NCBI RefSeq assembly: GCF_030403745.1
Contig: NZ_JAQMWP010000003.1
Coordinates: 248,001 to 312,000 of the forward strand
DNA length: 64,000 nucleotides
Direction of reading: 5' to 3'
Source: Streptomyces sp. S.PB5
GTDB lineage: Bacteria; Actinomycetota; Actinomycetes; Streptomycetales; Streptomycetaceae
Both the position numbers and the translations under genes were made by a program. Shown piece by piece: positions 4,336-21,075 of this stretch (the stretch's first letter is position 1; every line of letters begins with the position of its first letter). The notes under the pieces are model-generated. The model did no database searches. It was given only the letters and a program-made list of their open reading frames with translations, and was not told the origin of the DNA.

Positions 4336-5133
4336 ATGCGATTCCGTGTTCTGGGCCCCGTGCGTCTTCACCCGCGCACGCCCGCCGCTGCCAAACCCCG
4401 GGCCGTGCTCGCCACGCTGCTGGTGCGGGGCGGCACCGTCGTCTCCAGTGAGGCGCTCATCGACGAGTTGTGGCCCGATGAGCCGCCCCGTACCGCGTCC
4501 AGCACGCTGCATGTGTACGTCTGCCATGTGCGTAAAGCCCTCGCGGAGAGCGGGGCCGGGCGGCCCCTTGTCAGCAGGGCCCCCGGGTATCTGCTGCACG
4601 TCGAGCCGGGGGAGCTGGATCTGCGGCTGTTCGAGGAGTTGAGCGAGCGGGGGCGCGCCGAGGTGCGGGAGGAGCGGTATGCCGATGCTTCGCGGACCTT
4701 GGGGCAGGCGCTCGGTCTGTGGAGCGGGCCCGCGCTGTCCGGGATTCCGCAGGGGGTCGTGCTGCGGTCCGCCGCCACTCGCCTGGAGGAGCAGCGGCTC
4801 GGGGTGCTGGAGCAGCGGATCGGGGCCGATCTCAAGCTCGGGCGGCACGACGAACTCACCGGGGAGCTGATGGAGCTGGCCGTGGAGCATCCCTTGCGGG
4901 AGCGGCTGCACTGCCAGCTCATCGTGGCGCTGCACCGGTCCGGGCGGGCCTCCGACGCGTTGCGGGCCTACCGGGCGGTGCGGCGATCCCTGCACGAGGA
5001 GCTCGGGATCGGGCCCGGCCCGGCGCTCACGCGGCTGCACGACCACGTGCTGGGCGGAGCAGGTTCAGGACCAGCCAGCGGCGCAGGGCACCGGCATGGT
5101 CCGGTGAGCCGTGCACATCGTCGAACAGCTTGA
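4336..5133 (+). CDS. SARP-family transcriptional activator (cluster edge)
   Basis: A 265-residue AfsR/SARP-type regulator. The N-terminal OmpR-like winged helix runs from MRFRVLGPVRL through the wing YVCHVRKAL at about residues 1-95. A bacterial transcriptional activator (TPR-like) domain follows to about residue 245. The ATPase domain of large AfsR proteins is absent, so this is a small SARP like ActII-ORF4 or RedD. The ATG at 4336 is preceded by GAGGGGAG. SARPs usually activate neighbouring antibiotic genes by binding direct repeats near the -35 region. It lies tail-to-tail with the tetronate operon and its last 107 bp overlap the antisense hydrolase gene. The final 20 or so residues are low-complexity and probably not conserved. 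Confidence 0.88.
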   Translation: MRFRVLGPVRLHPRTPAAAKPRAVLATLLVRGGTVVSSEALIDELWPDEPPRTASSTLHVYVCHVRKALAESGAGRPLVSRAPGYLLHVEPGELDLRLFEELSERGRAEVREERYADASRTLGQALGLWSGPALSGIPQGVVLRSAATRLEEQRLGVLEQRIGADLKLGRHDELTGELMELAVEHPLRERLHCQLIVALHRSGRASDALRAYRAVRRSLHEELGIGPGPALTRLHDHVLGGAGSGPASGAGHRHGPVSRAHRRTA

Positions 5134-6058
5134 TCCGTACGTCGGGGAGCGCGGTGCGCAGCAGGGTCTGCTCCTGGGGCGGGATGATCTCGTCCCGGGC
5201 GCTCGCCACATACCGCACAGCGGCCCGTACGCCGTGGAGTTGCGCCGGGTCCAGAGGGAACTCCTTGAGCAGTGAGCGCAGTTCGGCGATGTCCGTCGCG
5301 CCCGTCAGACTGCGCAGGGTCGTCGCGGTGATCGTGGGGACGCGGGGCCACCAGTCGTCGTCGGTGAAGAAGTGGGCGACCGGGGCGCCCACGGTCAGGA
5401 CGCGGCCGACGCGGTCGTCCTCGGCGGCGGCGCGCAGGGCCATGTGGCCGCTGAAGCTCAGACAGAGGAGCGTGGTGTCGGTGGTCCGGGCGCGGGAGGA
5501 CAGCCGGTCCATGATCCAGGGCAGCAGGCGCCAGGAGTCGGCCGTGTAGCGCAGGGGGTTCTCGCCCACGCCCGGCATCTCCGTCACGACCGCGGCATAG
5601 CCGAGGCGTGTCAGTTTGGGCAGCAGGGGCGCCCATTGCTCCTTCACGCTGACTATGCCGCCCATCAGGACGAGGAGGGGGCGGCCGCGGTCCAGGCCTG
5701 CCGCCCAGCAGGCCAACGGGCCCTCCGGGTGGTCGAGTTCGAGGCGGACGATGCCTCGGCGGCGCGCTCCTCGCCACTTGTCGAACGCGGCCACGCCCGC
5801 CTGCTGGGCGCGGCCGCGTTCCGGGTCCCCGGCCGGGTGCGGAAAGCGGGCCAGGGCGTAGCAGCGGCAGGCGTCCAGGAGGCGGCCACGGGCCGCGAGG
5901 GTGTCGCCCTGGGCCGACCACACCCTGGCCCAGGAGGCCTCGTCGCCCTCGTCGTCGTTGTGGATCCGGGCCAGGGTCTGGGCCGCGGCCTTGGCGGTCA
6001 TGCCCTGGTTGCGGGCGTGCAGCAGGGCGTACGACTTCAACTCGCCGAGGTGGTCCAT
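5027..6058 (-). CDS. Alpha/beta hydrolase, tetronate acetate-eliminating (Agg5-like) candidate
   Basis: A 343-residue protein with an N-terminal helical region (about 1-100) and an alpha/beta-hydrolase core. The nucleophile elbow is SFSGH with Ser203; the usual first Gly of GxSxG is Ser. An acid (SARDEIIPP) and a His (DDVHGSPDH) follow in the expected order. In agglomerin and spirotetronate pathways such a hydrolase-fold enzyme removes acetate from the O-acetylated 5-hydroxymethyl tetronate, leaving an exocyclic methylidene. That role is inferred from the adjacent E2-like acyltransferase, with whose 3' end its start overlaps by 22 bp, and from the FkbH, ACP and KASIII genes of the same operon. 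It is the last gene of that operon. A generic esterase is the alternative. Confidence 0.75.
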   Translation of the reverse strand: MDHLGELKSYALLHARNQGMTAKAAAQTLARIHNDDEGDEASWARVWSAQGDTLAARGRLLDACRCYALARFPHPAGDPERGRAQQAGVAAFDKWRGARRRGIVRLELDHPEGPLACWAAGLDRGRPLLVLMGGIVSVKEQWAPLLPKLTRLGYAAVVTEMPGVGENPLRYTADSWRLLPWIMDRLSSRARTTDTTLLCLSFSGHMALRAAAEDDRVGRVLTVGAPVAHFFTDDDWWPRVPTITATTLRSLTGATDIAELRSLLKEFPLDPAQLHGVRAAVRYVASARDEIIPPQEQTLLRTALPDVRIKLFDDVHGSPDHAGALRRWLVLNLLRPARGRAAA

Positions 6059-6894
6059 GGGTTCGCCTCCTGCCCGGTCGACTGCTCGGCCTTGATCTCA
6101 CGGAGGTGGCCGGTACGGGACGCGGCCTGCCAGTCCTCCTCCAGGGCCGACTTGAGGTCGGCCAGTACGTCCGCCGCTGCGGCGCCGTCCAGGACCCGGT
6201 GGTCGAAGGCGAGGCCCAGCCGCATCAGCGGGGCCACCTCGATCCGGTCGCCGTCGCGGACGACCGGGCGGGGCGCCGTACGGCCGCAGGTGAGGGTGAG
6301 GGCCGTGCCGCCCGTGGAGTGGAAGCCGTCCACGGGGCGGTGGCCCAGGGAGCTCACGGAGACCGTGCCGAGCAGGGCGGGGCGGCGGCGGGCGCTGCGC
6401 AGGGCCGCGCCGAAGGCCAGCCGGCCCAGCCGGGCAGGGAGGCGGGCGAGGGTGCGGGCACCGCGGAACTCGGGGAGGGCGGTGACGTCCGGGGCCTCGC
6501 GGTAGCGGTCGACGCCGTCCTGGATGTCGTCCAGGGAGGCGGACTCCAGCGCGGGGAAGAGCGCCGACAGCACGATGCGGTCGCCTTCGGGGACCCGGGC
6601 GTCCAGCGCCAGCTTGGCTGTCACCTGCGGGAAACGGAGGATGCGGTGGCCTCGGCCGAGGACCGCGTTGGCCTCCGGGTGGCGGGCCAGTACCCGGCCC
6701 GTCGCATGCAGGACGTAGGTGACGGTGGAGTAGTGGCGGTCGGCGCGGTCGCGGTGGGCGTGGGCCTGGGTCATGTCGATGTCGGTGTCGAGGAACACCG
6801 GGCGCTGGGCGGCGGCGAACTCCAGGAAGTGCAGGGTGTGGCGGCGGTCCCGGACGGGGTGGGTGGTGTGGGCCGGGGGTTTCCTGGGGGTCAC
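6037..6894 (-). CDS. 2-oxoacid dehydrogenase E2-type acyltransferase (tetronate O-acetylation, Agg4-like)
   Basis: A 285-residue stand-alone catalytic domain of the E2/chloramphenicol-acetyltransferase fold. The active-site signature is AFDHRVLDGAAAADVL with catalytic His232 and Asp236 near the C-terminus. There is no lipoyl domain and no E1/E3-binding domain, and no E1 or E3 gene nearby, so it is not part of a pyruvate-dehydrogenase-type complex. E2-like acyltransferases of this form acetylate the primary hydroxyl of tetronate intermediates before elimination. GTG start at 6894 overlaps the ACP stop by 4 bp, and the 3' end overlaps the hydrolase, implying coupled translation. The assignment to tetronate maturation rests on gene context plus the fold. 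Confidence 0.8.
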   Translation of the reverse strand: MTPRKPPAHTTHPVRDRRHTLHFLEFAAAQRPVFLDTDIDMTQAHAHRDRADRHYSTVTYVLHATGRVLARHPEANAVLGRGHRILRFPQVTAKLALDARVPEGDRIVLSALFPALESASLDDIQDGVDRYREAPDVTALPEFRGARTLARLPARLGRLAFGAALRSARRRPALLGTVSVSSLGHRPVDGFHSTGGTALTLTCGRTAPRPVVRDGDRIEVAPLMRLGLAFDHRVLDGAAAADVLADLKSALEEDWQAASRTGHLREIKAEQSTGQEANPWTTSAS

Positions 6895-7130
6895 GGGGTC
6901 ACCACCTCGTCGTAGATCTCCTGGAGGCTGCGGGCCTCCAGGAGGCGGGAGACCGCGATGCGCCGGCCGGTGGCGCGTTCGAGGAGGACGACCAGTTTGA
7001 GGAGCAGCAGGGAGTCCCAGTCGGGGAGTTCGTCGAAGTCGGCGGCGAACTGGGCGTCGGTGAGGGGGAGTCCGAGTTCGGTTCGGACCAGGTGGTGGAA
7101 GTCGGTGGAGGGCAGGGTCGGGGAGGTCAT
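6891..7130 (-). CDS. Acyl carrier protein (glyceryl carrier candidate)
   Basis: A 79-residue free-standing ACP. The phosphopantetheine attachment Ser lies in LPDWDSLLLLKLV, a variant of the DSL motif. It is distinct from the second ACP at 11190-11468, which has YGLDSVAALS. ATG 7130 is preceded by GAGAGG; the longer upstream reading adds 25 residues without ACP character. Its position between the KASIII-like and E2-like genes matches the ACP that receives the glyceryl unit from FkbH-type enzymes in tetronate pathways. Which ACP carries glycerate and which the fatty acyl chain is inferred from order only. Confidence 0.82.
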   Translation of the reverse strand: MTSPTLPSTDFHHLVRTELGLPLTDAQFAADFDELPDWDSLLLLKLVVLLERATGRRIAVSRLLEARSLQEIYDEVVTP

Positions 7131-7168
7131 GTCGGCCTCTCGGTGTCGGGGGTGGGATGCGGGTCGGC

Positions 7169-8185
7169 TCAGGGTTTCTGCAGGGCGAATCCGGACTTGA
7201 TCCACTTGCTGGACTCGACCGCCACGGCCAGCGCCCTCTGGCCGCCGGACATCTGGGGCAGCAGCTGCTCGATCTGGAGGAAGGGCAGGGCGTTGCCGTT
7301 GTTGCCGGTGCGGTCGACGCAGGAGATCGGCCGGGCGGAGGGCACGGCCAGCTGCTCGGTGATGAGGCGGGTCATCCGGCCGGAGAGCTGCGGCGGGAGG
7401 AGGAAGTCGAGGTCGTCCGGGGACCAGTCGAGGTCGTCGAGGAGCTCCCAGAGGATCTCCACCGCCATGACGGGGATGTTCTCCTCGATCGCCTTGTAGT
7501 CCTCGGTGAGCGCCTGTCGGTCCTCGTGGCGGTCGGCGAGGCCGAACCAGTCGATGATCTGACCGGGTTCACGGCCGAGGCCGGTGCAGCGGTTGAGGGT
7601 GCGCAGGAGGGCCGGGCCCTGAGGGTCCGCGGTGAGTACGGCGGCGCCGGCGCCGTCTCCGAACAGCACGGCGTTGACGAGGTCGCCGGGTGCGGCCGCC
7701 GACATGTCCCGGTCCACGTCCAGGTGCTTGGTGCAGACGTCACCGCCGATGGCGAGGCCGCAGCGGTATCCGCCGCCCGTGATCAGGAGCCGGGCGAGGT
7801 CGAGGGCCTGTACGGCGCCGGCGCAGCCCGACTGGAGCTGGTAGGTGGGGAGTTGGTCGAGACCGAGCAGGTCGGCGACCCGGCTCGCGGTGGTCGGCAT
7901 CAGGTGGTCGGGGGTGGCCGTGCCCAGCACCAGGAACTCGATGTCGGCGGGCTCGGCCGCGCAGCGCTCCATGGCCTGGGCCGCGGCCCGTGCGCACAGG
8001 TCGGCCAGGGAGTGCCGGATCTCGCCGGTCAGCAGGTCACGGGCGAAGTGGCGGGTCTGGGTGCCGATGTACACCTCGATCCACTCGGCGCTGATGCCCA
8101 GGGCGGCCGAGAGCGCGGTGTTGTCGACCGGGTCGCCGGGGAGGGCGGAGCCGGCGGCGGCGATGTGGGGGACGGGGGGCGTCAT
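7169..8185 (-). CDS. KASIII-like condensing enzyme (tetronate-forming, RkD/Agg2-like) with altered active site
   Basis: A 338-residue FabH-fold protein. Cys121 lies in LQSGCAGAVQAL, the expected nucleophile, and Asn295 lies in RTGNNGNALP. The position of the catalytic His, in the FabH motif PHQA, reads LPPQL, so it is Pro265. In tetronate pathways a KASIII homologue joins a beta-ketoacyl thioester to glyceryl-ACP, forming the C-C and C-O bonds of the ring rather than doing decarboxylative priming. Loss of the His, which assists decarboxylation in FabH, is compatible with such non-decarboxylative chemistry. The gene starts at ATG 8185, overlapping the PKS stop by 4 bp, and ends 38 bp before the ACP. 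A broken FabH is unlikely because the rest of the fold is intact. Confidence 0.82.
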   Translation of the reverse strand: MTPPVPHIAAAGSALPGDPVDNTALSAALGISAEWIEVYIGTQTRHFARDLLTGEIRHSLADLCARAAAQAMERCAAEPADIEFLVLGTATPDHLMPTTASRVADLLGLDQLPTYQLQSGCAGAVQALDLARLLITGGGYRCGLAIGGDVCTKHLDVDRDMSAAAPGDLVNAVLFGDGAGAAVLTADPQGPALLRTLNRCTGLGREPGQIIDWFGLADRHEDRQALTEDYKAIEENIPVMAVEILWELLDDLDWSPDDLDFLLPPQLSGRMTRLITEQLAVPSARPISCVDRTGNNGNALPFLQIEQLLPQMSGGQRALAVAVESSKWIKSGFALQKP

Positions 8186-11100
8186 GGGGTGGGCTCCTGT
8201 ATGTGGTGCTGCTGTACGTGGTGTTCCTGTATGTGGTGCTCCGTCACGTACGCGATGAGGTCGCCGAGCGTGGAGAGGCGGGACAGCAGCTCCTGGACCG
8301 GGAGTTCGCCGAGGGCGGGGAGGCTTTGCTCGATACGGGCCTTGAGTTCCATCACGGCGACCGAGTCGAGGCCGAGGTCCTCGTAGAGGCGGGCGTCGGG
8401 GGAGAGGTCGGCGGGGTGGTAGCCGCCGACGTGGGCCACGGCTTCGAGGACGGCGGTGTCGGTGGCGGTGGCAGCGGCGGGCCGGGTCTGGTCCGGCGTC
8501 TTGGGACGTTGTGCGGGCGGAGGCGTGGGGAGACCCCGGTGCCAGAAGCGGTGGTCGGTGGCGAAGGCGTACGGCGTCAGTCGGGTCAGGACACGGTCCT
8601 GTGGTGGGTGGACCGCCTCCCAGTCGGGATCGAGGCCCGCCCGGTAGAGGGTGGCGAGGGCCTCGGCGAGGTCTCGGGCGCCCGCTTGCTCGCCGGGGAG
8701 CGGGTGCACCGGATGGGGGCGGTGCGATGTCAACTGGCGGGCCAGCGCGGTGAGTACGGGCTTCGGGCCCAGTTCGACGAGATGGGTCGGGCCCTCGTCC
8801 AGGAGTTGTGCGGCCGCGTCCGCGAACAGGACGGAGGCGCTGATGTGTTCCGTCCAGTACGTGGCGTCCATCGGCTCGGACTCCAGGAGCTTGCCGCGCA
8901 GGGTGGAGTAGACGGGGAGACCGGGGACCCCGCCGCCGATCTGCTCGGCGAGTCGGTGGAAGGGTTCGAGGACGGGACGCATGAGGGGTGAGTGGAAAGC
9001 GTGCGAGACCTCCAGGCGGCGTACCCGGGTCCCGCGGTGCTCCAGTGCCTCGGCGATGCGCCCGAGCGCCGCCAGGTCTCCCGACAGCACGGTGGAGGCC
9101 GGCCCGTTGAGCGCCGCGTAACCGACCAGGGGCTCGTGGTCGACGTACTCCCGCAGCGGCTCGGCCGGGGACCGTACGGCGATCATGCCGCCGCCCTCGG
9201 GGAGCTCCTGCATCAACGCACCGCGTACGGCGACGAGTTGTGCGGCCCCTTCCAGCGGGAGGGCCCCGGCCAGTACGGCGGCGGCGAACTCTCCGACGCT
9301 GTGCCCGAGCAGCAGGTCCGGACGTACGCCCAGCTCGGTGAGGCTCGCGCCGAGGGCGTATCCGACGGCGAACAGGGCGGGTTGGGCCCAGCCGGTGCGG
9401 TGGACGGCCGGGTCGGCGCCGAGCAGCAGGTCGCGGACGCGGCCGCCGGTGTGCGGGAGCAGCACGGTGTCGACGGCGTCGAAGTGGTGCCGGAACAGGG
9501 GGGATTCGCGGTACAGGCGGGCCGCCATGCCCGGGTACTGGGCGCCCTGGCCGGTGAACAGCCAGGCGGTGAAGGGGGGTTCGGTGGGCGGGGCCGCAAG
9601 TGCCGGTGCCTCGGCGGCGGTGCGCAGGCGCGCGGCCAGGTCGGTGGGGTCGGTGGCGGGGACCGCGCAGCGGTGGGTGTGGCCGGACTTGATGCGGTGG
9701 GAGCTCCAGCAGAGGGGGCCGAGGGGGGTGCGGCGGCGGGTGATCGAGTCGGCCTGGGCGAGCAGGTTGCGGCGCAGGGCGGCTTCGGAGGGGGCGGTGA
9801 GGGTGAAGAGCGGGGTGCCCAGGCCGGAGGGGCGGGGTGGAGGTGTGTCGGTGGGGTTCCGGTCGGCGGGGATGCCGAGGGGCGTGCCTTCGTGAGCGGA
9901 GCCTTCCCGGGTGTCGCTCGGACGGCTCGCCTTGCCCGCGCGCGCGTGCGGGCCTCGGGGCGCCGACTCCAGCACCGCGTGCGCGTTCGTGCCGCCCAGC
10001 CCGAAGCTGCTCAGCCCCGCCACCACCGGTCCGGCCCCCAGTCGCAGCGGTGCCTTCAGCAGTCGTAGCCCCTGGTCGGGCAGGTTCAGGGCGGGGTTCT
10101 CACGGGCCGAGAAGCGGCTGGCCGGGACCGTGCGGTGGTGGAGGGCGAGGGCGACCTTGATGAGGCCCGCGATGCCGGCGGCGCCCTCCGTGTGGCCGAG
10201 GTTGCCCTTGACCGAGCCGAGGGCCATGGGGCGGGGGCGGCCGGAGTGGAGGGCGCCCAGGGCCTTCGTCTCGATCATGTCGCCCAGGATCGTGCCGGTG
10301 CCGTGGCCCTCCGTGAAGGTCACGTCCGACGGTTCGACCCCGGCGCGACGGTACGCCGAGGACACCACCGCCTCCTGGCACCAGCGGTTCGGCGCGGTGA
10401 TGCCGTTGCTGCGGCCGTCCTGGTTGACGGCGGTGCCGCGGAGGACCGCGTACACGGGCTGCCCGTCGGCGACCGCGTCCGCGTACCGGCGCAGCACCAC
10501 CGCCCCGACGCCCTCGCCGCGCCCGATGCCGTCCGCGTCCGCGCTGAACGGCTTGCAGCGGCCGTCGGGCGCCGCCAGCCCCGCCTGGGTGTAGAAGATG
10601 CCGAGCGCGGGGGTGAGGGCCAGGTTGACGCCGCCCGCTATCGCCCAGTCGCACTCGCCCGCCAGCAGCGAGTTCGCCGCCAGATGCACCGCCACCAGCG
10701 AGGACGAGCACGCCGTGTCCACCGCCAGGGACGGGCCCTTGAGGTCGAGGTGGTACGAGACCCGGTTGGCGATCATGCAGTAGCCGTTGCCGGAGCCGAT
10801 CTGGGCCGTGATGCCGGACAGGTCCGTGAGCGTCAACTGCGCCCACTCGCTGCCCATCACGCCGACGAACACCCCGGTCGGTGTCCCCGCCAGTCGGTGC
10901 GGGGCGATGCCCGCGTCCTCGACCGCCCGCCACGCGCAGTGCAGCATCAGCCGCTGCTGCGGGTCCATGGAACCGGCCTCGCGAGGCGAGAGGGAGAAGA
11001 ACTCGTGGTCGAAGACGTCCGGGTCGGAGAGGAAGCCCGCCTCGCACGGGAAGTCCGAGGCCGCCCACCGGTCGGCCGGCACCGGACGGGCCGTGTCACC

Positions 11101-11468: not shown

Positions 11469-11473
11469 CGGTG

Positions 11474-13132: not shown

Positions 13133-14844
13133 ACCGTCTCCCTCGCCAGACCGAGCCGCAGCAGCGAGAACAGCCGGTCCGTCCGCCCTGCCTCGTACGC
13201 CTCGTCCAGCAGTCGCTCGTACGCCTCCGGGTCGGCCGGGCCCTGCTGCTCGCCGAGCCGCACCAGCAGCCGGTCGAGCGCCGCCCGCAGCCAGACGCCG
13301 TCGCGCCACACCCCGTCGGTCGCCACCAGCCGGTTGTGCAGCCACAGGCCAAGACAGGCGGCGCCCGCGAAGCACAGGCAGTAGCGCCGCGCCGTCTCGA
13401 AGGCCTCGTACGGGACCCCGGCGGCCAGGTCCCAGGGCGCCGCCATCTCCTCGTGGACCTTCTCGGTGACCGTCAGCAGACGCCGGGCGGCAGCGGCGAG
13501 GGCGGGGTGGGACTCCGCCCGGGCCACCCAGGCGGGGAGCGCGCCGAGCACCGAACTCCCGTACCGGGACAGCAGGGAGAGACCCCTCGCGTCGAACTCC
13601 GGCAGCGGGACGGAGAGGTCGCAGGCCGCGACCGGTTCGTCCGCCTGGCCCCGCCCCCAGTGCCGTACCAGTGAACGGAACTGGTTCACCAGGGAGTTGA
13701 GGTTGACCAGGGTGTTGCCGTCGAAGAGGGAGACGATGCGGTGATCGCGTTCGACCTTCTCGAACAGGCCGTAGTGGTCCGCCCCGGCGAGGAAGGCGCG
13801 CGCCCCGAGGAGGGCGGCCAGTTCGCGCAGCAGCTCCTCCGTGCCGGTCGGCACCAGGTACTTGGTGACGGCGGAGACCACGCTCAGCTCGCCGGTCGCG
13901 GTGTGGACCAGGCGGGCGGCGACCAGGGAGAGCGCCTCGTGGGTGAGGACGTCGGCCGCCGCGGAGGCCAGGACGTGCCGCGCCTGGGGGAGTTCGGCGA
14001 GCGGGCGGCCGTACAGGCGGCGTTCGGCCGCGAAGCCGAGGGCGAGGCTGAGGCCGTGGTCGGCGGCGCCGAGGGAGAGGGAGGCGCACATGGTGCGGGT
14101 CAGCTGCAGGGCCTTGAGGACGGTTTCGATGCCGCCGCCCTCGGTGCCGACGACCGTGGTCCGGGGCAGGCGGGCGCGGTGCAGGGCGATGCCGGAGATG
14201 TCGGCGCCGCGGATGCCGTGGGTGGGGATCTTCGGGAGGTGGCGGTAACTGCCGGGCGGCAGCTCGCGTTTGTCGGCGAGCAGGACGCTGAAGCCGCGCG
14301 GTCCGCCGTCCGGGCCGGTGCGTGCGAGGAGGGTCAGGACACTGCCCCGGGTGGCGTTGTTGATCAGCCACTTCTCACCGCTCACCCGCCACGCCCCGGG
14401 CCCGTCCGGTACCGCCTCCACCTCCCCGGCGAGCAGGTCGCTGCCGTGCGCGCGCTCGGTCAGACCGAGGGCGACCGGGACCCCTGCGCGGATGTCCGCG
14501 CCGAGCCGGGCCGCCTGTTCGGCGCTGCCCGCGATCCAGACGCAGACCGCGCCGAGGTAGGTCTTGCCGTGCGCGACGGCCACGGTCAGGTCCCGTCGGG
14601 CCACCGTCCGCAGCAGCTGGAGGGCGTGCTCGTAGTCGCGCAGCCGGCCGCCGACCGGGGCGGGCACGTAGTAGTCGGGCAGCCCCCAGTCGTCCAGCAG
14701 CCGGCAGATCTCCGCCGGGAACTCCTCGCGCGCGTCGAGGGAGGCCGAGGCCGCGTCGGAGAAGGGGGAGCGCGGGTCGGCGGGGTCGCCGAGGTAGAGC
14801 TCCAGCTCCTCGGCGAGACGGTACGGGGAGTGCTCCATCGTCAT
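13129..14844 (-). CDS. Acyl-CoA dehydrogenase family protein 2 (acyl-ACP desaturation candidate)
   Basis: A 571-residue paralogue of the downstream gene with a better preserved dehydrogenase signature: LTERAHGSDLL in the flavin/substrate loop and SLFDGNTLVNLNSLVNQF in the C-terminal helix region. ATG 14844 overlaps the FAAL stop by 4 bp; a second ATG at 14838 is possible. Position directly after the fatty acyl-AMP ligase and before the ACP suggests that it oxidises an ACP-tethered fatty chain using FAD. A pair of diverged, adjacent dehydrogenases recalls heteromeric acyl-CoA dehydrogenases of actinobacteria. The regiochemistry cannot be read from the sequence. Confidence 0.8.
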   Translation of the reverse strand: MTMEHSPYRLAEELELYLGDPADPRSPFSDAASASLDAREEFPAEICRLLDDWGLPDYYVPAPVGGRLRDYEHALQLLRTVARRDLTVAVAHGKTYLGAVCVWIAGSAEQAARLGADIRAGVPVALGLTERAHGSDLLAGEVEAVPDGPGAWRVSGEKWLINNATRGSVLTLLARTGPDGGPRGFSVLLADKRELPPGSYRHLPKIPTHGIRGADISGIALHRARLPRTTVVGTEGGGIETVLKALQLTRTMCASLSLGAADHGLSLALGFAAERRLYGRPLAELPQARHVLASAAADVLTHEALSLVAARLVHTATGELSVVSAVTKYLVPTGTEELLRELAALLGARAFLAGADHYGLFEKVERDHRIVSLFDGNTLVNLNSLVNQFRSLVRHWGRGQADEPVAACDLSVPLPEFDARGLSLLSRYGSSVLGALPAWVARAESHPALAAAARRLLTVTEKVHEEMAAPWDLAAGVPYEAFETARRYCLCFAGAACLGLWLHNRLVATDGVWRDGVWLRAALDRLLVRLGEQQGPADPEAYERLLDEAYEAGRTDRLFSLLRLGLARETV

Positions 14845-16592
14845 GCCGGGCTCACCCGCGCCAGCGCCCGGTCGGCCGCGTCGCTGACCAGCTCGCGTAC
14901 CGCCGGTTCGAGCACCTCGTACAGCGGGACGAGGGCGCCTTCGAGGAACAGCCTTCGCATCAGGGTGCGTTGGACCTTGCCGCTGGTGGTGCGGCGGACC
15001 GTGCCGGGGCGGACGAGCACCACATTGCCCGCCGCGACCGAGAACTGACGGCCTATCTGCAACTGGACCGCCGTGGCGACCGCGCGGAGATCGCCGTCCG
15101 GGACGGCCGCGGCCCGCACCTCCTGTACGACGACCAGGTGTTCGCCCGCCGCGCTCTGCACGGCGAACGCGGCGCCCGTGCCGGCGGCGAGCGAGCGGTC
15201 CGCGGACTGCACGGTGCGCTCCACGTCGTGCGGGTACACATTGCGCCCGGCGAGGATGATGACCTCCTTGAGCCGGCCGGTGACGAAGAGCTCACCGCCG
15301 TCGAGGACACCGAGGTCGCCGGTGCGGAGCCAGCCGTCGGGGGAGCGGCTCTCGGCCGTGGCCCGCGGGTTGCGGAAGTAGCCGGGGGTGACGCTCGGGC
15401 CGCGGACCCAGATCTCGCCGACGGCTCCCGGGGGCCGGTCGGCTCCCGTGGCCGGGTCGGTGACGCGGATCTCGCAGTCGCGGACCGTGCCGCTGCCGGC
15501 GAGGGTCCGCACCGAGGAGCCCTCGACGGGCGGGGCCAGCTCGCCCAGCTCCAGGGCGGTGGCGTCCACCTGCCTGGTCACCGGCGGGGCCTTGGGGCGG
15601 CAGCCTGTCACCAGCAGGGTCGTCTCCGCCATGCCGTAGCAGGGGAAGAAGGTCTCGGGCCGGAAGCCGGCCGGGGCGAAGCGGTCGGCGAAGGCCTGGA
15701 GGGTGTCGGCGCGCACGGGCTCGGCCCCGTTGGGGGCCACCCGCCAGCCGGACAGGTCCAGGGTGGCCAACTGCTCGTCGGTGACCCGGCGTACGCACAG
15801 GTCGAAGGCGAAGTTGGGGCCGCCGCTGCCGCTCAGCCGGTAGTCGTCGATCATCTTCAGCCAGCGGTGCGGGCGTTTGAGGAACGCGGTCGGCGGCATC
15901 AGGACCGCGGTGCCGCCCGCGTAGAGGGGCTGGAGGATATGGCCGATGAGCCCGAGGTCGTGGTAGTGCGGCAGCCAGCCGCCGCCGACGGTGTCCGGGC
16001 CGGTCCCCGTCCACGCCTGGATGGCCGCCTCGTTGGCGAGCAGATTGGCGTGGGTGACCATCACACCCTTGGGGTCGCTGGTCGAGCCCGAGGTGTACTG
16101 CAGGAACGCGAGATCGCCCGGGCCGGTGGCCGGTGGCCGCCAGTCCGCCGGGTCGGCGAAGTCGCCCTCGCCGTCGGTGCCCAGACAGTGGACGTGCGGC
16201 ATGTTCTCCGCGGCCAGCCACGCCTCCAGGGCGGGGGCCAGCTCGGGGGACGTCAGCACCGCGACCGCCTCGGCGTCGCGCAGGATGCCGGTGACCCGGG
16301 CCAGACCGCGGCCCTGATCGGTGGGGACCGGGGCGGGGACGGCGACGGCACCGGCGTACAGACAGCCCAGGAAGGCCGCGGTGAAGGCGGTGCCCGAGGG
16401 GTGGAGGAGCAGCACCTGGCGGCCCACCGCGCCGCGGGCGCGCAGCCAGACGGCGATACGGCGGGCCCGGGTGTCGAGGGCGGCGTACGTGACGTGCTCG
16501 GCGGTGTCGTCCTGGAGGTGGATCAGGGCGTCCTTGGCCGCGTGGGCGGCCATGTTCTCCAGGATGACCTCGGTGAAGGTCCTGCTGCTCAC
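14841..16592 (-). CDS. Fatty acyl-AMP ligase (FAAL)
   Basis: A 583-residue adenylate-forming enzyme. The P-loop is LQYTSGSTSDPKGVMVTH at about residues 165-181. Further motifs are GWLPHYHDLGL, typical of FAALs, CYGMAETTL, and the hinge/acceptor motifs GWLRTGDLGVL and GRLKEVIILAGRNVYPHDVE. FAALs activate a free medium or long-chain fatty acid with ATP and pass it to an ACP rather than to CoA. GTG 16592 overlaps the FkbH stop (GTGA). The gene supplies the starter chain of the pathway and implies that the acyl part of the product is fatty-acid derived, not built by a long PKS line. Confidence 0.9.
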   Translation of the reverse strand: MSSRTFTEVILENMAAHAAKDALIHLQDDTAEHVTYAALDTRARRIAVWLRARGAVGRQVLLLHPSGTAFTAAFLGCLYAGAVAVPAPVPTDQGRGLARVTGILRDAEAVAVLTSPELAPALEAWLAAENMPHVHCLGTDGEGDFADPADWRPPATGPGDLAFLQYTSGSTSDPKGVMVTHANLLANEAAIQAWTGTGPDTVGGGWLPHYHDLGLIGHILQPLYAGGTAVLMPPTAFLKRPHRWLKMIDDYRLSGSGGPNFAFDLCVRRVTDEQLATLDLSGWRVAPNGAEPVRADTLQAFADRFAPAGFRPETFFPCYGMAETTLLVTGCRPKAPPVTRQVDATALELGELAPPVEGSSVRTLAGSGTVRDCEIRVTDPATGADRPPGAVGEIWVRGPSVTPGYFRNPRATAESRSPDGWLRTGDLGVLDGGELFVTGRLKEVIILAGRNVYPHDVERTVQSADRSLAAGTGAAFAVQSAAGEHLVVVQEVRAAAVPDGDLRAVATAVQLQIGRQFSVAAGNVVLVRPGTVRRTTSGKVQRTLMRRLFLEGALVPLYEVLEPAVRELVSDAADRALARVSPA

Positions 16593-18445
16593 TGGTACGT
16601 CCCCTTCAGCGTGATGTGCGACGGGACCTCGGGGAGGTCGAGGAGGGGGTGGCGGAAGGCGCGCTCCGGACCCGGCGCCTGGGCCGGCTCGGGCAGGAAG
16701 CCGAGCGAGGGGTAGAGGTCCCGCACCCGGCCGTTCCTCGCCGTCGGGCGGTAGGTGCCGTGCACGGCGGGGGCGCCGGAGGCCTTGGCGTGCTCCAACA
16801 GGGCCGCGAACACGGCCTGTTCGATGCCCCGGCCGAAGACCCGGCAGCTGAGCAGGACGTTGTCCAGGTGCCAGCCGTCCGGTGCGCCGCGCAGGAACAC
16901 GGCGCCGACCAGGCCGTTGTCGCCGAACTTGTCGCGGGTGGTGACGGTCAGGACCCGCCCGGCGTACTCGCTCACCTCCGGGCCGGTCATCCGTCGGGTG
17001 GTGAGGTTGAACTGGTTGGTCCGCTGGGTCAGCTGGGCGACCCGGGCCACCTCGCCCGGCCGCAGGGGCGCGACGTCGACGACCACGTCGAGCCGCGCCA
17101 GATACTCCTCGTACGACCGCGCGCTCTCCCGGAGCCGATGACGGTCCCCCTCGCTGCGGTACCGGTCGGCCCGTTGCAGGTCGGCGTCGGTCAGCTGGGG
17201 TGTGTCGAACCAGCCGTCCGCCAGCAGGCGTTCGGTGTGCAGCGCGGGCTCGTCGTCCAGGGGGACGAGGGCCACGCCGGGCAGGGCGGAGGCCACCTGG
17301 CCGCGTTCGAAGGCGGAGTCGTCGGCGAGGACGAGGCTGTCGATGCCGAGGCCGAGCCGCTCGGCGATCTGCCGTAGCCCTTCGCTCTTGGGGCCCCAAT
17401 TCGCCTGCACCTGTACGAAGTCGGGCTCCCGCAAGGTCATGTCCGGGTGCTCGCGCAGCACGGCCAGCAGCGGTGCCCGGTCGTTCTTCGAGCACACGGC
17501 GAGCAGCACGCCCTGGGCGGCGAGCTGTCCGACCACCCGCTGGAACCCGGCGAACGCCTCTCCTCGCACGGTCCCGGCGGCGGCGATCCCCTCGGGGCCG
17601 ACGTCGCCGAGCACCCCGTCCCAGAGGGTCTGGTCGGCGTCCAGGACGAGGACCTTGCGGGTGCGGCCGCGCAGGGTGCGGGTCAGGTGGCCGATCTCGC
17701 GGGCGTACCGGGCGAGCAGTTCGGAGCCGAGGCGGGCCTTGGCGTAGGCCGACAGCCGGGCGTCGCGGACCGGGCCGCCCTCGGCGACGAGCGGGTCCAG
17801 ATCGACGACGTGGGTGCGGGGGTGGCGTCCGACGAGCCGGAGGAGACCCGCGTTGAAGTCCCGCCAGAGCGCCGCGAGTTCGGTACGGGCGCGCAGGTCG
17901 ACGAGTTGGTGGGCGTCCGAGCGGAGCAGCGGGAGGGTGTTGAGGACGAGCATCCCCCGGGCGTGGTCGCCGTGCCGGGCCGCGTGGGCGTCGAGCCGGG
18001 CGAGCAGGTCGGCCGTCGCCTCGGCGACATCGGTGACCGTCCAGGGGCGGGGCAGGGTGTCGAAGACCGTCGAGGAGTCCAGGACACACAGGGAGAGGGC
18101 GGTGTCGGGCGCGTAGACGGGACCGTCCGTGGTGAGCAGGTCGCGCTCCCAGGCGCCGAAGTCCCCTTGCCGTGCATCGAGTCGCAGTCCGTGGCGGGCG
18201 AACTCGGCGGTCAGGGAGGCGGTCAGGCCGTCCAGTGTGCCGCTGCCGCCGACGGTGACCCGTACCGGCTCCGGCTCCCCGGCCGGCTCCCCGGCGGGCT
18301 CTTCGTCCGGGCGGGCGAGGATCCGGCCGGCCGACTGCAGGGCACCGAACGGGTCCGGTCCGGCGGCGAGTTCCGCGAGAAGGGCGGGCACCTCGGGGTC
18401 GTACCGGCGCAGGGAGCGCAGGCGGTCGAGGAGGGCGTTCGTCAT
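16589..18445 (-). CDS. FkbH-like HAD-IIIC glyceryl-ACP synthase
   Basis: A 618-residue protein, the first gene of the tetronate operon. The N-terminal region of about 255 residues resembles the SGNH-like domain found on long FkbH forms. The HAD phosphatase core begins with VLDADQTLWDG, giving the catalytic Asp269 and Asp271 with Thr273. A GNAT-like C-terminal region carries the FkbH signature RTNQFNLTTRRM. FkbH enzymes bind 1,3-bisphosphoglycerate, remove the phosphate and place D-glycerate on an ACP, giving the three-carbon unit that becomes C4, C5 and the exocyclic carbon of a tetronate. ATG 18445 faces the monooxygenase gene across a 77-bp region holding two CTTAAG elements. This gene strongly supports a tetronate or glyceryl-derived product. 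Confidence 0.9.
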   Translation of the reverse strand: MTNALLDRLRSLRRYDPEVPALLAELAAGPDPFGALQSAGRILARPDEEPAGEPAGEPEPVRVTVGGSGTLDGLTASLTAEFARHGLRLDARQGDFGAWERDLLTTDGPVYAPDTALSLCVLDSSTVFDTLPRPWTVTDVAEATADLLARLDAHAARHGDHARGMLVLNTLPLLRSDAHQLVDLRARTELAALWRDFNAGLLRLVGRHPRTHVVDLDPLVAEGGPVRDARLSAYAKARLGSELLARYAREIGHLTRTLRGRTRKVLVLDADQTLWDGVLGDVGPEGIAAAGTVRGEAFAGFQRVVGQLAAQGVLLAVCSKNDRAPLLAVLREHPDMTLREPDFVQVQANWGPKSEGLRQIAERLGLGIDSLVLADDSAFERGQVASALPGVALVPLDDEPALHTERLLADGWFDTPQLTDADLQRADRYRSEGDRHRLRESARSYEEYLARLDVVVDVAPLRPGEVARVAQLTQRTNQFNLTTRRMTGPEVSEYAGRVLTVTTRDKFGDNGLVGAVFLRGAPDGWHLDNVLLSCRVFGRGIEQAVFAALLEHAKASGAPAVHGTYRPTARNGRVRDLYPSLGFLPEPAQAPGPERAFRHPLLDLPEVPSHITLKGTYQ

Positions 18446-18464
18446 GGCCGGGAGCCTGCGGAGT

Positions 18465-18503: not shown

Positions 18504-18522
18504 CGGCGGACAGCATCGCGGC

Positions 18523-19761
18523 ATGACGATTCAGACGTCCGTGTGCGTGGTCGGCGGTGGTCCCGCAGGGCTCACCCTCGCGCTCGAACTGGCCCGGCGG
18601 TCCGTGCCCGTCGTCGTGCTGGAGGCGAGCGGTCACTTCAATCGCAGCTTCCGGGGCGAGTCCGTCTCCCCGGACTCGGTCTGGCTCCTCGACCGGCTCG
18701 GGCTGCTCGACCGGCTGGACGGGGGGTACGTCCAGATGCACCGGATGGAGATCTCCGACTCCGGACACACCGTGTTCCGGGCGGAGTTCTCGGACTTCCG
18801 GTATCCGCACCCGTTCCCCGTCGAGCTGCCCCAGCCCACGCTGCTCGCGGCACTCGCGGAAGCCGGTGCCGGACTCACCGGCTTCCGGCTCCTCCAAGGG
18901 GCCACGGCGACCGGGCTGTTGTACGACGGGGAGGGCGCGGTCGCCGGGGTGCGGGCCCGAACGCCCGAGGGGGAGACCGAGGTTCGCGCGATGCTGACCG
19001 TCGCCGCGGACGGACGGTTCAGCAAGGTGCGGGAGATGGCGGGGATCGAGTACCGGAAGGTTCCGCTGGAGCGGGACGTCATCTGGCTCAAGCTGCCCTT
19101 TCCGTACGGAGACTGGGACGACCGCACCTACCGGGTACGGATCCGGGGCGATCAGCACGGGCTGTTCATTCCGACACGGCCCGACAGCGTGCGGGTCGGG
19201 TTCAACATCCCCAAGGGCGGGCTGCGGGAGATGCGGCAGCAGGGGCTCGGGGCACTGTACGAGCGGCTCGATCTGCTGGCGCCGGAACTCTCGGGGGCCG
19301 TGCGGGACGAGGTGCGGAGCTGGTCCGACACGTCGATGCTCGACATCTTCACGACGGTGGTGCCTCGGTGGGCGGTGCCCGGGCTGACGCTGATCGGCGA
19401 CGCGGCGCATACCCTCACGCCGATTCTGGGGCAGGGCGTCAACCACGCGATCATCGACGCGGTGACGCTCGCCCCGCTGGTGGAGAAGGCGATGGGGGAG
19501 GGCGGGTCGACGGGGGCGCTGCTCTCGGCGTCCGAGATGTTCCAGCGGGAGCGGGAGGCGTCTGTTGCTCGGTCCCGTGCGCTTCAGCTTCGGCAGGAGC
19601 GGCTCTTCACGTTGGACGGGGCTGTGGGGGCGGCCTGGCGGCGGTCGCTCTACCGGGTGGTGAGCAGTAGTCCGTGGCTGGTGCGGAAGGTGCTGGCCGG
19701 GGCGTACTTCCAGTTGCAGGAGCCTGGGGAGCAGGTCGCGAAGATGCAGGTGGGGATGTAG
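18523..19761 (+). CDS. FAD-dependent monooxygenase (PHBH/UbiH-like fold)
   Basis: A 412-residue flavoprotein. CVVGGGPAGLTLALEL is the FAD-binding GxGxxG motif at residues 9-20, AADGRFSKVREMAGI is the DG motif and LIGDAAHTLTPILGQGVN is the GD motif binding the FAD ribityl chain. It belongs to the single-component hydroxylase/geranylgeranyl-reductase-like class that uses NAD(P)H and O2 to hydroxylate or epoxidise. In this cluster it is a candidate for oxygenating the unsaturated acyl chain or the tetronate ring. ATG 18523 is chosen because the upstream 20 codons overlap the CTTAAG promoter elements and lack family character. The stop TAG overlaps the GTG of the following MFS gene by one base. 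Confidence 0.85.
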   Translation: MTIQTSVCVVGGGPAGLTLALELARRSVPVVVLEASGHFNRSFRGESVSPDSVWLLDRLGLLDRLDGGYVQMHRMEISDSGHTVFRAEFSDFRYPHPFPVELPQPTLLAALAEAGAGLTGFRLLQGATATGLLYDGEGAVAGVRARTPEGETEVRAMLTVAADGRFSKVREMAGIEYRKVPLERDVIWLKLPFPYGDWDDRTYRVRIRGDQHGLFIPTRPDSVRVGFNIPKGGLREMRQQGLGALYERLDLLAPELSGAVRDEVRSWSDTSMLDIFTTVVPRWAVPGLTLIGDAAHTLTPILGQGVNHAIIDAVTLAPLVEKAMGEGGSTGALLSASEMFQREREASVARSRALQLRQERLFTLDGAVGAAWRRSLYRVVSSSPWLVRKVLAGAYFQLQEPGEQVAKMQVGM

Positions 19762-20357
19762 TGGTTGATCTGCGGGCCGGTGGGGCCGCACATGTCACAG
19801 CCCCGCGTCCCTCCCGGGGCGCGATCCTCGCCGTCGCTCTCCTGCTCAACCAGTTCGTGGTGGCCCTCGCCGGTAGCAGCGTCGCGACTGTCGGACCGGG
19901 GTTCCGGACGGCCATGGGGGTTTCTGCCACCGCACTTCCCTGGGCCGTCATCGTCTACGTCCTCGCGCTAGGCGTTCTCCTGCTGCCGTTCCGGTGGCTG
20001 TGCGGGCGCATCGGGCCCTTCCTCGTCCTGCTCGGCGGGCTGTGGATGTTCGTCCAGTCCTCCGTCGTGATCGGCACCCACCTGGTCACCACGCCGCACG
20101 GCTTCCTCGCCCTTCGTGGCGTACAAGGTGCCGGTGCCGCCGCGCTCACCGCCGTGGCGCTGATGCTGATGCCGGTACGAGTCCGACCCGCCTGGAGTGC
20201 CGTGATCCTCGGAGGGCTCGGTGTGGGTCTCCTGCTCGGTTCGGCCGTACCGGGCGACTCATGGCGCTGGGTGTTCTGGGCGAACGTACCGCTCGCCGTC
20301 CTCAGCGGTATGACCACGCTCGGACTGCTGCGCGGGGCCCGTCGGCGTCCGGCATGA
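19761..20357 (+). CDS. Half-length MFS transporter protein (six transmembrane segments)
   Basis: A 198-residue membrane protein matching only the N-terminal half of DHA2-type drug exporters. Six hydrophobic segments are visible: ILAVALLLNQFVVALAG, PWAVIVYVLALGVLLL, FLVLLGGLWMFVQSSVVIG, LRGVQGAGAAALTAVALML, AWSAVILGGLGVGLLLG and WRWVFWANVPLAVLSG. The typical RGVQGAGAA and WRWVFWxNVP blocks are intact. GTG 19761 overlaps the monooxygenase stop (TAGTG). A stop follows TM6 and no MFS C-terminal half occurs in any frame downstream, where the thioesterase lies antisense (56-bp overlap). It may dimerise to a full transporter or be a degraded exporter. Confidence 0.75.
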   Translation: MVDLRAGGAAHVTAPRPSRGAILAVALLLNQFVVALAGSSVATVGPGFRTAMGVSATALPWAVIVYVLALGVLLLPFRWLCGRIGPFLVLLGGLWMFVQSSVVIGTHLVTTPHGFLALRGVQGAGAAALTAVALMLMPVRVRPAWSAVILGGLGVGLLLGSAVPGDSWRWVFWANVPLAVLSGMTTLGLLRGARRRPA

Positions 20358-21075
20358 CACGGTCGTACCGCCGCACCAGCGCGGCCACCTCGTCCAGCAC
20401 CGCCCCCTCGTGCGACCGCAGGAAGAAGTGCCCGCCCGGCACCGTCCGCACCTCGAACCCCCGTCCCGCGAACCGGCGCCAGGCGATCACCTCCGCCACC
20501 CGCACCAGGGCGTCGTCCTCCCCGGCGAACAGATGCAGCGGCACCCGCACCGCGTCCGGCCGTACGGAGTCCACGTCCGCGCACACTCTCAGGTCGTCCC
20601 GGACCACGGGCAGCAGCGCGCGGAGCCACTCCGGGTGGTCCAGGAGCAACGGGGGCAGACCGCCCAACCGGGCCAGGGCGGCGGCCAGTTCGGGATCCGG
20701 GGCGTGGGCCTCGGCGATGTGCGGGGCCGGGAGGTGCGGGGCGCGGTGGGCGCCGAGGAGCAGGGCGCGGGGGAGGGGCGCGCCGCGGGACTGGCGGCGC
20801 AGGGCGAGGGCGTAACCCACCAGGGCGCCCATGCTGTGGCCGTACACCAGGTGAGGGTGCGACATCACATCGTCCAGCTCGGCGTCCAACGCACGCACCA
20901 GCGTGTCGAGTTCGGTGAACCGGGGCTCCCGCGCGCGGCTCTCCCGGCCCGGCAGCCGTACCGGCACCACCTCCACGACGCAGCCCCGCTCCGTGAGGCC
21001 GCGCTGCCAGCGGGCGTAGACCGAGCCACCGGCACCGGCGTACGGGAAGCAGAGGAGCCGGCAGGGGGCGTTCAC
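20302..21075 (-). CDS. Type II thioesterase
   Basis: A 257-residue GrsT/RifR-type thioesterase. The early block is CFPYAGAGGSVYARW, Ser81 lies in GHSMGALVGY, LHLFAGEDDALV carries the acid, and the catalytic His is in PGGHFFL. Such enzymes hydrolyse stalled or wrong acyl groups from carrier proteins of PKS and NRPS systems. GTG 21075 overlaps the SARP stop by 4 bp, so the two genes are co-transcribed. Its presence suits the ACPs of the tetronate operon. It could alternatively release product, but tetronate formation by the KASIII-like enzyme usually releases the chain itself. Confidence 0.9.
   Translation of the reverse strand: MNAPCRLLCFPYAGAGGSVYARWQRGLTERGCVVEVVPVRLPGRESRAREPRFTELDTLVRALDAELDDVMSHPHLVYGHSMGALVGYALALRRQSRGAPLPRALLLGAHRAPHLPAPHIAEAHAPDPELAAALARLGGLPPLLLDHPEWLRALLPVVRDDLRVCADVDSVRPDAVRVPLHLFAGEDDALVRVAEVIAWRRFAGRGFEVRTVPGGHFFLRSHEGAVLDEVAALVRRYDRVMPDADGPRAAVRAWSYR

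What the first reader, a model, noticed from the sequence alone, without database searches (positions are those of the whole stretch)
5027..21075. Compact fatty-acid-primed tetronate cluster with a single non-reducing PKS module
FkbH, ACP, KASIII-like, E2-like acyltransferase and alpha/beta hydrolase form the known tetronate cassette. It is combined here in one coupled operon with FAAL, a dedicated ACP, two acyl-CoA-dehydrogenase-like enzymes and one KS-AT(malonyl)-ACP module. The predicted logic is: a fatty acid is adenylated and loaded, desaturated on the ACP, extended once without reduction, and condensed with glyceryl-ACP to a tetronic acid. It is then O-acetylated and acetate is eliminated to a 5-methylidene group. 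A flavin monooxygenase could add oxygen. The product would resemble an unsaturated agglomerin/RK-682. I do not recognise this exact gene set as a described pathway.
Basis: partly seen in the sequence, partly recalled or inferred. Interest (0 to 1): 0.85.

Follow-up and report, generated by a model that had tools for sequence, protein, structure and literature searches.

The report
Dienoyl fatty-acid tetronate gene cluster
A Streptomyces gene cluster joins the fatty-acid starter kit of lipopeptide antibiotics to the standard tetronate ring-making kit, so it probably makes a small tetronate with an unsaturated tail; the same kind of cluster sits in about one in sixteen Streptomyces species sampled, and I found no described product.

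Summary
Ten genes on the minus strand (5027-18445) form one coupled operon, FkbH-FAAL-ACAD1-ACAD2-ACP-[KS-AT-ACP]-KASIII-ACP-E2-hydrolase; seven of nine junctions overlap. The conserved cluster is larger, about 4177-26378: flavoprotein, thioesterase, two SARPs, two-component pair, MMPL transporter.

It is not a one-off. Of 392 genomes of the genus, 66 hold a tetronate KASIII and 24, the window's included, hold this type. Three other FAAL-primed types carry zero, one or two ACADs. The zero-ACAD order fits the printed RK-682 letters, so FAAL priming itself is probably not new. FAAL-ACAD1-ACAD2-ACP is a lipopeptide starter cassette.

New here: the dienoyl cassette joined to exo-methylene tetronate genes; a natural series in ACAD number; ACADs whose usual catalytic Glu is Asp (ACAD1, 51 of 51 rows) or His (ACAD2, 60 of 62); a flavoprotein found in 30 of 31 genomes with two-ACAD tetronate clusters and in 0 of 182 others sampled. 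Product, chain length and flavoprotein role are unproven. Verdict: new variant of a known kind.

The parts
4177..5133 (+). SARP1 regulator (true start probably about 4333)
   Evidence: Pfam BTAD + Trans_reg_C; present beyond the hydrolase or E2 end in several relatives
5027..6058 (-). alpha/beta hydrolase, Agg5/AbyA5-like acetate-eliminating enzyme
   Evidence: phmmer to AbyA5 5no5 E=1.5e-81; Ser203, Asp289 and His316 line up with it; S in 17 of 18, D and H in 18 of 18 type A rows
6037..6894 (-). E2-like acyltransferase (Agg4 type), proposed O-acetylation of the 5-hydroxymethyl
   Evidence: Pfam 2-oxoacid_dh E=5.5e-15; His232 and Asp236 of HxxxDG kept in 38 of 38 aligned rows
6891..7130 (-). 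ACP2, glyceryl carrier
   Evidence: Pfam PP-binding; Ser40 kept in 56 of 56 rows
7169..8185 (-). KASIII-like tetronate synthase (RkD/AbyA1 type)
   Evidence: PDB 5by7 E=1.3e-112; Cys121, Pro265 and Asn298 kept in 69 of 69 rows; tree
8182..11193 (-). single non-reducing PKS module KS-AT-ACP
   Evidence: Pfam; DTACSSS, EGHGTGT, GNLGHTEG, GHSVGE, HAFHSP, GLDSV present
11190..11468 (-). ACP1, acyl-starter carrier
   Evidence: Pfam PP-binding E=5e-18; Ser48 kept in 55 of 55 rows
11474..13132 (-). ACAD2, proposed desaturase of carrier-bound starter, His at the usual base position
   Evidence: Pfam ACAD domains; His366 in 60 of 62 aligned ACAD2 rows
13129..14844 (-). ACAD1, proposed desaturase of carrier-bound starter, Asp at the usual base position
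   Evidence: Pfam; Asp375 in 51 of 51 rows; aligned to YEG of 3pfd
14841..16592 (-). FAAL, fatty acyl-AMP ligase
   Evidence: Pfam AMP-binding E=8.6e-69; NCBIfam fatty acyl-AMP ligase models among the best matches, below their cut-offs
16589..18445 (-). FkbH-like glyceryl-S-ACP synthase
   Evidence: NCBIfam TIGR01686 289 bits, above its cut-off of 146.65; DxD of HAD kept in 63 of 63 rows
18520..19761 (+). PHBH-type FAD monooxygenase-like flavoprotein
   Evidence: Pfam FAD_binding_3 E=6.3e-37; homolog of at least 52% identity in 16 of 17 genomes with two-ACAD tetronate clusters and 0 of 182 others in one sample; 30 of 31 over all such genomes found
19794..20357 (+). half-length MFS protein (187 aa as taken here), with homologs of 192-236 aa in the three nearest relatives
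   Evidence: Pfam MFS_1 positions 1-172 of 347; relatives
20302..21075 (-). type II thioesterase (editing)
   Evidence: Pfam Thioesterase E=2.5e-33
21072..21896 (-). SARP2 regulator
   Evidence: Pfam BTAD E=2.8e-47; syntenic in three relatives
21986..23215 (+). sensor histidine kinase
   Evidence: Pfam HisKA_3; syntenic in three relatives
23333..24193 (-). LuxR-type response regulator (start uncertain, probably about 23940)
   Evidence: Pfam Response_reg + GerE; syntenic in three relatives
24063..26378 (-). MMPL-family transporter, putative exporter and outer boundary of the cluster
   Evidence: Pfam MMPL E=6.4e-81; 73-85% identical and syntenic in the three nearest relatives

Best explanation
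A biosynthetic cluster for a 3-(alka-2,4-dienoyl)-5-methylidene tetronate, probably modified further by a flavoprotein. FAAL adenylates a free fatty acid and loads it on ACP1. ACAD1 and ACAD2 desaturate the ACP1-bound chain to a 2,4-dienoyl thioester. The KS-AT-ACP module adds one malonyl unit without reduction, giving a 3-oxo-4,6-dienoyl-ACP. FkbH loads a glyceryl unit from 1,3-bisphosphoglycerate on ACP2, and the KASIII joins the two by C-C and C-O bond formation to a 5-hydroxymethyl-3-acyltetronate. The E2-like enzyme acetylates the hydroxymethyl and the hydrolase-fold enzyme eliminates acetate to the 5-methylidene. The flavoprotein acts on the dienoyl intermediate or on the product, most likely by epoxidation or hydroxylation. 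The MMPL protein exports it. Shown here: gene content, order, co-occurrence and conserved residues. By homology to proven enzymes: the tetronate steps. Inferred: number and position of double bonds, timing, chain length, single use of the PKS module, flavoprotein step, export.
For: Domain and family matches. KASIII signature kept in 69 of 69 rows, and the window groups within a clade of 24 same-type loci. Chemistry of the five tetronate genes established elsewhere (PMC4979870; PMC5819245). In 22 non-tetronate loci chosen for an ACAD1 homolog, FAAL was found in 20 and NRPS or condensation genes in 17. Lipopeptide clusters with ACADs between FAAL and ACP make C8:2,4 (taromycin) and C10-11:2,4 (malacidin) chains (PMC9113097). 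ACAD number varies by type, 0 in B, 1 in C, 2 in A and D, and follows the KASIII tree. The flavoprotein is in 16 of 17 genomes with A/D clusters and 0 of 182 others in one sample, and in 30 of 31 A/D genomes over all. In the six genomes of one clade where no hydrolase was seen beside E2, two of them on short contigs, a 63-66% identical copy lies elsewhere.
Against: No metabolite is known here. ACAD2 lacks an acidic residue at the usual base position, so its reaction may not be an ordinary dehydrogenation. E2 was not detected by tblastn in 3 of 7 type D loci. The set is split in one close relative (G128), where FkbH, ACP2 and E2 are missing from the locus and a more distant FkbH-ACP-E2 trio lies 7 Mb away. 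In the seven type A genomes of another clade the flavoprotein is not beside the operon; it is 42 kb off in two complete genomes and on other contigs in five. The PKS module could act more than once. The flavoprotein's role is open.
Confidence: 0.7

Rival explanations
1. ACAD1 and ACAD2 form one hetero-oligomeric enzyme with a single working site and introduce only one double bond, giving a 3-(2-enoyl)-5-methylidene tetronate.
For: The two genes are adjacent and coupled; ACAD2 has His where the base normally is, as if it were a non-catalytic partner. Paired ACADs with one inactive subunit are known in mycobacterial steroid degradation (recalled, not checked).
Against: ACAD2 stands without ACAD1 in 10 of 10 type C loci and keeps its own His there (10 of 10); ACAD1 lacks an ACAD2 hit in 2 of 22 non-tetronate loci, one of them on a 5 kb contig. 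[quoted passage not shown]
Confidence: 0.2
2. [quoted passage not shown]
For: The flavoprotein tracks genomes with both ACADs and no homolog of 45% or more was seen in type B and C loci; the HxcO/HcmO pair is described in PMC9136287 (passages).
Against: Methylosinus OB3b has the flavoprotein between E2 and hydrolase with no ACAD annotated in the 17 kb seen, which points to a role on the ring. Similarity of the flavoprotein to HcmO was not tested.
Confidence: 0.25
3. The cluster is an ordinary RK-682/agglomerin-type locus whose ACADs are not used, and it makes a known agglomerin.
For: Tetronate genes are standard; type B, with no ACAD, has an order that fits RK-682 letters.
Against: ACAD genes are kept between FAAL and ACP1 in 21 of 23 other type A loci as fetched, one of the two misses having them 30 kb away and the other on a second contig, with invariant site residues and a linked flavoprotein.
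Confidence: 0.12

Closest known systems
RK-682 pathway (rk genes, Streptomyces sp. 88-682)
   Same: KASIII (RkD), FkbH (RkE) and two ACPs (RkC, RkF) by printed assignment; type B loci show FAAL-ACP-PKS-KASIII-FkbH-ACP, an order that fits those letters
   Different: No ACADs in the type B order; RK-682 keeps the 5-hydroxymethyl (recalled); the primary paper was not held, so RkA and RkB are unverified
Agglomerin pathway (agg genes)
   Same: Agg4 acetylates and Agg5 eliminates acetate (PMC4979870); the window has a homolog of each type
   Different: How agglomerin gets its chain was not checked; the review says only that some tetronates take intermediates from fatty acid synthesis
Abyssomicin and other spirotetronate clusters
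   Same: The hydrolase is closest to AbyA5; same five-gene ring set
   Different: Modular PKS chain instead of a fatty acid plus one module
Lipopeptide unsaturated-starter cassette (rotihibin rthHIJK; taromycin, malacidin)
   Same: FAAL-ACAD-ACAD-ACP in this order in rotihibin and in three annotated plasmid loci; ACADs lie between FAAL and ACP in taromycin and malacidin
   Different: There the chain goes to an NRPS, here to a PKS module and tetronate synthase
Methylosinus trichosporium OB3b plasmid pOB3b3 cluster
   Same: KASIII-FkbH-ACP-E2-flavoprotein-hydrolase-PKS
   Different: No FAAL or ACAD annotated in the 17 kb seen; large type I PKS

Membership tests
Tetronate biosynthetic cluster (FkbH, ACP, FabH-like set) | FkbH-like glyceryl-ACP synthase with intact HAD DxD | tested here: met
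   TIGR01686 289 bits; both Asp kept
Tetronate biosynthetic cluster (FkbH, ACP, FabH-like set) | Stand-alone ACP | tested here: met
   ACP2, PP-binding E=3.6e-7, Ser kept
Tetronate biosynthetic cluster (FkbH, ACP, FabH-like set) | FabH-like enzyme of the tetronate subgroup | tested here: met
   Groups with KASIIIs that sit beside FkbH genes; PPQLSG in place of HQAN. No named, characterised tetronate KASIII was in the tree
Tetronate biosynthetic cluster (FkbH, ACP, FabH-like set) | Product holds a glycerol-derived C3 unit | not testable with these tools
   Needs labelling
Exo-methylene tetronate (Agg4/Agg5 type) | E2-like acyltransferase with HxxxDG | tested here: met
   Pfam PF00198, motif kept
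Exo-methylene tetronate (Agg4/Agg5 type) | Agg5-type hydrolase-fold enzyme | tested here: met
   AbyA5 E=1.5e-81; Ser, Asp, His kept in the window, while type B homologs have Gly for Ser and for His in 8 of 8; 6 of 7 type D homologs also have Gly for Ser
Lipopeptide-type unsaturated starter cassette | FAAL, two ACADs and ACP contiguous in that order | tested here: met
   same order in annotated NBC_01244, NBC_00963 and B. glumae plasmids
Lipopeptide-type unsaturated starter cassette | Chain handed to an NRPS condensation domain | tested here: not met
   No condensation domain among the 20 proteins scanned, 4177-31921
Lipopeptide-type unsaturated starter cassette | ACADs make a 2,4-dienoyl-ACP | not tested
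   Enzyme assay needed
RK-682-type FAAL-primed tetronate | Same proteins by sequence as rkA-rkF | not testable with these tools
   The rk sequences were not at hand under a name; the paper is not held
Canonical acyl-CoA dehydrogenase | Catalytic Glu in the YEG position | tested here: not met
   Asp in ACAD1, His in ACAD2
Spirotetronate | Modular PKS and small AbyU/VstJ-type cyclase | tested here: inconclusive
   Only one PKS module among the proteins scanned; a dedicated search for the cyclase was not run

The most novel reading that the evidence does not exclude
The product carries both partners of the spirotetronate [4+2] reaction, a conjugated diene in the tail and an exo-methylene on the ring. 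The cluster-specific flavoprotein is then not an oxygenase but a cyclase in the manner of PyrE3/ChlE3, joining two such molecules into dimeric spirotetronates built from fatty acids. In addition ACAD2, with His as base, removes a gamma proton from the enoyl-ACP, so the Asp/His pair is a two-step relay for carrier-bound 2,4-dienes across tetronates and lipopeptides alike.
Probability: 0.06. Interest if true: 0.85.

Novelty: new variant of a known kind. Interest (0 to 1): 0.5.

Why it matters
If the reading holds, a compact, easily cloned operon type present in about 6% of sampled Streptomyces species makes a tetronate class with no described product in the searches run here. The zero, one and two ACAD types give a ready natural series for asking what each ACAD does on a carrier-bound chain, a point on which a 2021 lipopeptide review says no mechanistic studies were reported (PMC9113097, passages). 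The Asp and His residues give precise sites to mutate. An exo-methylene tetronate is a reactive group (general chemistry, not tested), so the compounds may be bioactive.

Tried and rejected
Foxicin clusters (PMC5318452, abstract and passages) came up in the search but carry a different PKS/NRPS set; rejected. Sampling the phylum gave 4 of 396 genomes with a match, three of them of the genus itself.

First readings that I corrected. I took L053 to lack ACADs; they lie about 30 kb upstream on the same contig. I took one type A clade to lack the hydrolase; it is elsewhere in each of the six genomes. In the first 20 kb, 12 of 23 type A loci showed the flavoprotein. Two more have it just upstream. 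Eight more have it elsewhere in the genome: G094, G187 and G139 and G353, G367, G296, G264 and G266. Only G028 does not.

KASIII matches: of 73, 70 are covered by the 69 typed loci. Two more were fetched late: G070 shows KASIII-FkbH-ACP-E2-hydrolase without the flavoprotein, so it looks like type E; the G050 contig (4.7 kb) shows only the KASIII with no PKS match before it, so it is not of type A-D layout as far as it goes. The third, a second copy in G226, was not fetched. Typing of L078 and L080 as type E is weak because their contigs are short; L080 groups with type C. L077, typed B, lacks a FAAL hit on its 6.5 kb contig.

ACAD1 loci outside tetronates: 19 genus loci and 3 plasmid loci were fetched; the remaining matches, mostly at 39% identity or below but with a few at 47-52%, were dropped. 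The NRPS and condensation queries came from three of those same loci. Tetronate FAALs as one clade against lipopeptide FAALs is neither shown nor rejected (p-AU 0.50). The trees are quick ones without bootstrap. Structure prediction was not run: its rule names only window proteins and loci of certain other tools, and a single-sequence model would have been weak.


Full report
What is there. The operon at 5027-18445 on the minus strand holds ten genes: FkbH, FAAL, ACAD1, ACAD2, ACP1, a KS-AT-ACP module, KASIII, ACP2, an E2-like acyltransferase and an alpha/beta hydrolase. Seven of nine junctions overlap. Divergent from it lie a PHBH-type flavoprotein and a half-length MFS protein, then a type II thioesterase, a SARP, a sensor kinase, a response regulator and an MMPL transporter; a second SARP lies at the other end. 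In the three nearest relatives the block from MMPL to flavoprotein is in the same order. In a more distant one (G094) MMPL, HK, SARP2, thioesterase and flavoprotein homologs are spread over the 39 kb beyond the hydrolase, among other genes. In one relative (L041) the left neighbour is the same helicase gene as in the window, and on the right the window runs into urea amidolyase genes, so I place the cluster at about 4177-26378.

How common it is. KASIII of the tetronate kind was found in 66 of 392 genomes at E up to 1e-60. Type A, the window's, counts 24: FkbH first, two ACADs, E2 and hydrolase. Type B counts 10: FAAL-ACP-PKS-KASIII-FkbH-ACP-hydrolase-thioesterase, no ACAD and no E2. Type C counts 10: FAAL-ACAD2-ACP-PKS-KASIII-FkbH-ACP, no hydrolase found. 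Type D counts 7: two ACADs, FkbH after KASIII, and the flavoprotein before the hydrolase. Type E counts 15, mostly loci with modular-PKS matches or no FAAL; type F counts 3, divergent. The KASIII tree returns A, B, D and F as one side of a branch each (A with support 91); C and E need two changes, because L080, on a short contig, was typed E and falls with C. Named type A, B and C loci also sit on linear Streptomyces plasmids.

Tetronate part. The KASIII has its best solved match in 5by7, whose PPQLSG and TGNNGN stretches it shares; a FabH (5bqs) has HQAN there. Cys, Pro and Asn of these sites are kept in 69 of 69 rows. The hydrolase matches AbyA5, with Ser203, Asp289 and His316 kept. In type B the Ser and His are Gly in 8 of 8 rows, which fits the absence of E2 there; in type D the Ser is Gly in 6 of 7 rows although the His stays, so the Ser may not be needed. 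The E2 keeps HxxxDG in 38 of 38 rows. The chemistry of these enzymes is established in other tetronates (PMC4979870, part of section 1.7 read; PMC5819245, passages). So ring formation, acetylation and elimination rest on homology with proven enzymes.

Starter part. ACAD1 relatives outside tetronate clusters lie in lipopeptide-type loci: of 22 fetched, FAAL was found in 20, ACAD2 in 20, and NRPS or condensation genes in 17. Annotated examples are Streptomyces sp. NBC_01244 and NBC_00963 and a Burkholderia glumae plasmid, all with FAAL-ACAD-ACAD-ACP in a row. Rotihibin has the same four genes in the same order, though its main chain is described as cis-2-decenoyl, that is mono-unsaturated, with the second ACAD thought not essential (PMC8552735, passages): a result against a strict two-ACADs-two-double-bonds rule. 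A 2021 review lists C8:2,4 for taromycin and C10-11:2,4 for malacidin, places ACADs between FAAL and ACP there, and says that no mechanistic studies of these ACADs had been reported (PMC9113097, passages). ACAD1 trees split into A, D and lipopeptide rows; ACAD2 trees into A, C, D, F and lipopeptide rows. So the ACAD genes of each type seem to have stayed together. Whether tetronate FAALs have one origin is not resolved.

Odd active sites. In the alignment with 3pfd the usual catalytic Glu (YEG) is Asp375 in ACAD1. In a joint alignment that column is Asp in 51 of 51 ACAD1 rows and His in 60 of 62 ACAD2 rows; the two exceptions are lipopeptide rows, one gap and one Ala. That the Glu is the base in ordinary ACADs is recalled. 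For ACAD2 the column rests on the MAFFT alignment with ACAD1, in which the RD pair before the site lines up without gaps.

The flavoprotein. Its homologs of at least 52% identity occur in 16 of 17 genomes with type A or D clusters in a 199-genome sample, and in 0 of the other 182; the next matches are at 42% or less. The 17 are taken, on the footing that the sample is part of the earlier 392, as the handles listed show; two KASIII genomes among the 182 (G050, G070) were looked at later and are not of type A or D as far as their contigs go. The chance of this by random placement is about 1e-22 if genomes were independent, which they are not. Over all 31 A and D genomes found, 30 have it (24 type A: window, 12 in the first stretch, 2 upstream, 8 elsewhere, 1 without; 7 of 7 type D). 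The one without, G028, is a draft in about 1300 contigs. The gene lies between ACP2 or E2 and the hydrolase in type D and between E2 and hydrolase in Methylosinus OB3b, the latter without an annotated ACAD in view. No homolog of 45% or more was seen in the type B, C and E loci. The best solved match is 8uiu, 127 bits, then a group at 54-59 bits that includes ChlE3 and PyrE3. I favour oxygenation, at about two to one over a redox-neutral role.

What is known and what is not. RkD is the KASIII and RkE the glyceryl-ACP synthase of RK-682, and RkC and RkF are ACPs. Type B order, FAAL-ACP-PKS(with ACP)-KASIII-FkbH-ACP, fits the letters A to F. So FAAL priming is probably part of RK-682 biosynthesis, but the primary paper is not held. 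The 2025 FAAL review has no word beginning 'tetron' in its main text (PMC11837247, find only). Searches for tetronate with FAAL, ACAD, dienoyl or related terms showed, in the listings I saw, no paper describing this gene set (of one search's 65 papers only 20 were listed). Most subscription papers are not in the library, so this is weak evidence of absence.

Verdict. It is a new variant: two known cassettes joined, widespread, with no product found in the searches named. Interest 0.5.

Noticed in passing
window 19794-20357: Half-length MFS protein (187 aa as taken here, matches only the first half of the Pfam model); homologs of 192, 204 and 236 aa stand at the same place in the three nearest relatives, so it is conserved rather than a fresh truncation.
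   Followed up: partly
L041 and L261/L286 (G128): A close relative lacks FkbH, ACP2 and E2 in the cluster, while a more distant FkbH-ACP-E2 trio (50-54% identical) lies about 7 Mb away with no KASIII match in the 20 kb seen: a possible split cluster.
   Followed up: partly
ACAD1 window residue 375, ACAD2 window residue 366: Asp and His replace the canonical catalytic Glu of acyl-CoA dehydrogenases, in lipopeptide cassettes too.
   Followed up: yes
L192 (Methylosinus trichosporium OB3b pOB3b3): A methanotroph plasmid holds KASIII-FkbH-ACP-E2-flavoprotein-hydrolase beside a large type I PKS, an apparent tetronate cluster.
   Followed up: no
L193 (Pseudalkalibacillus hwajinpoensis plasmid): KASIII-FkbH-ACP-E2 with two flavoproteins, a stand-alone KS, reductases and a FabZ-like enzyme: a tetronate-like cluster with a dissociated chain builder.
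   Followed up: no
L101-L103: Three Streptomyces loci with a divergent tetronate set (KASIII 42-43% identical), an ACAD2-like enzyme with the same His, E2 and a flavoprotein at 37%, but no FAAL found.
   Followed up: no
L045, L054, L057, L059 and their genomes, with G028 and G266: In one type A clade the Agg5-like hydrolase has moved away from E2; in three genomes it lies about 20-24 kb off on the same contig, in the three drafts on other contigs.
   Followed up: yes
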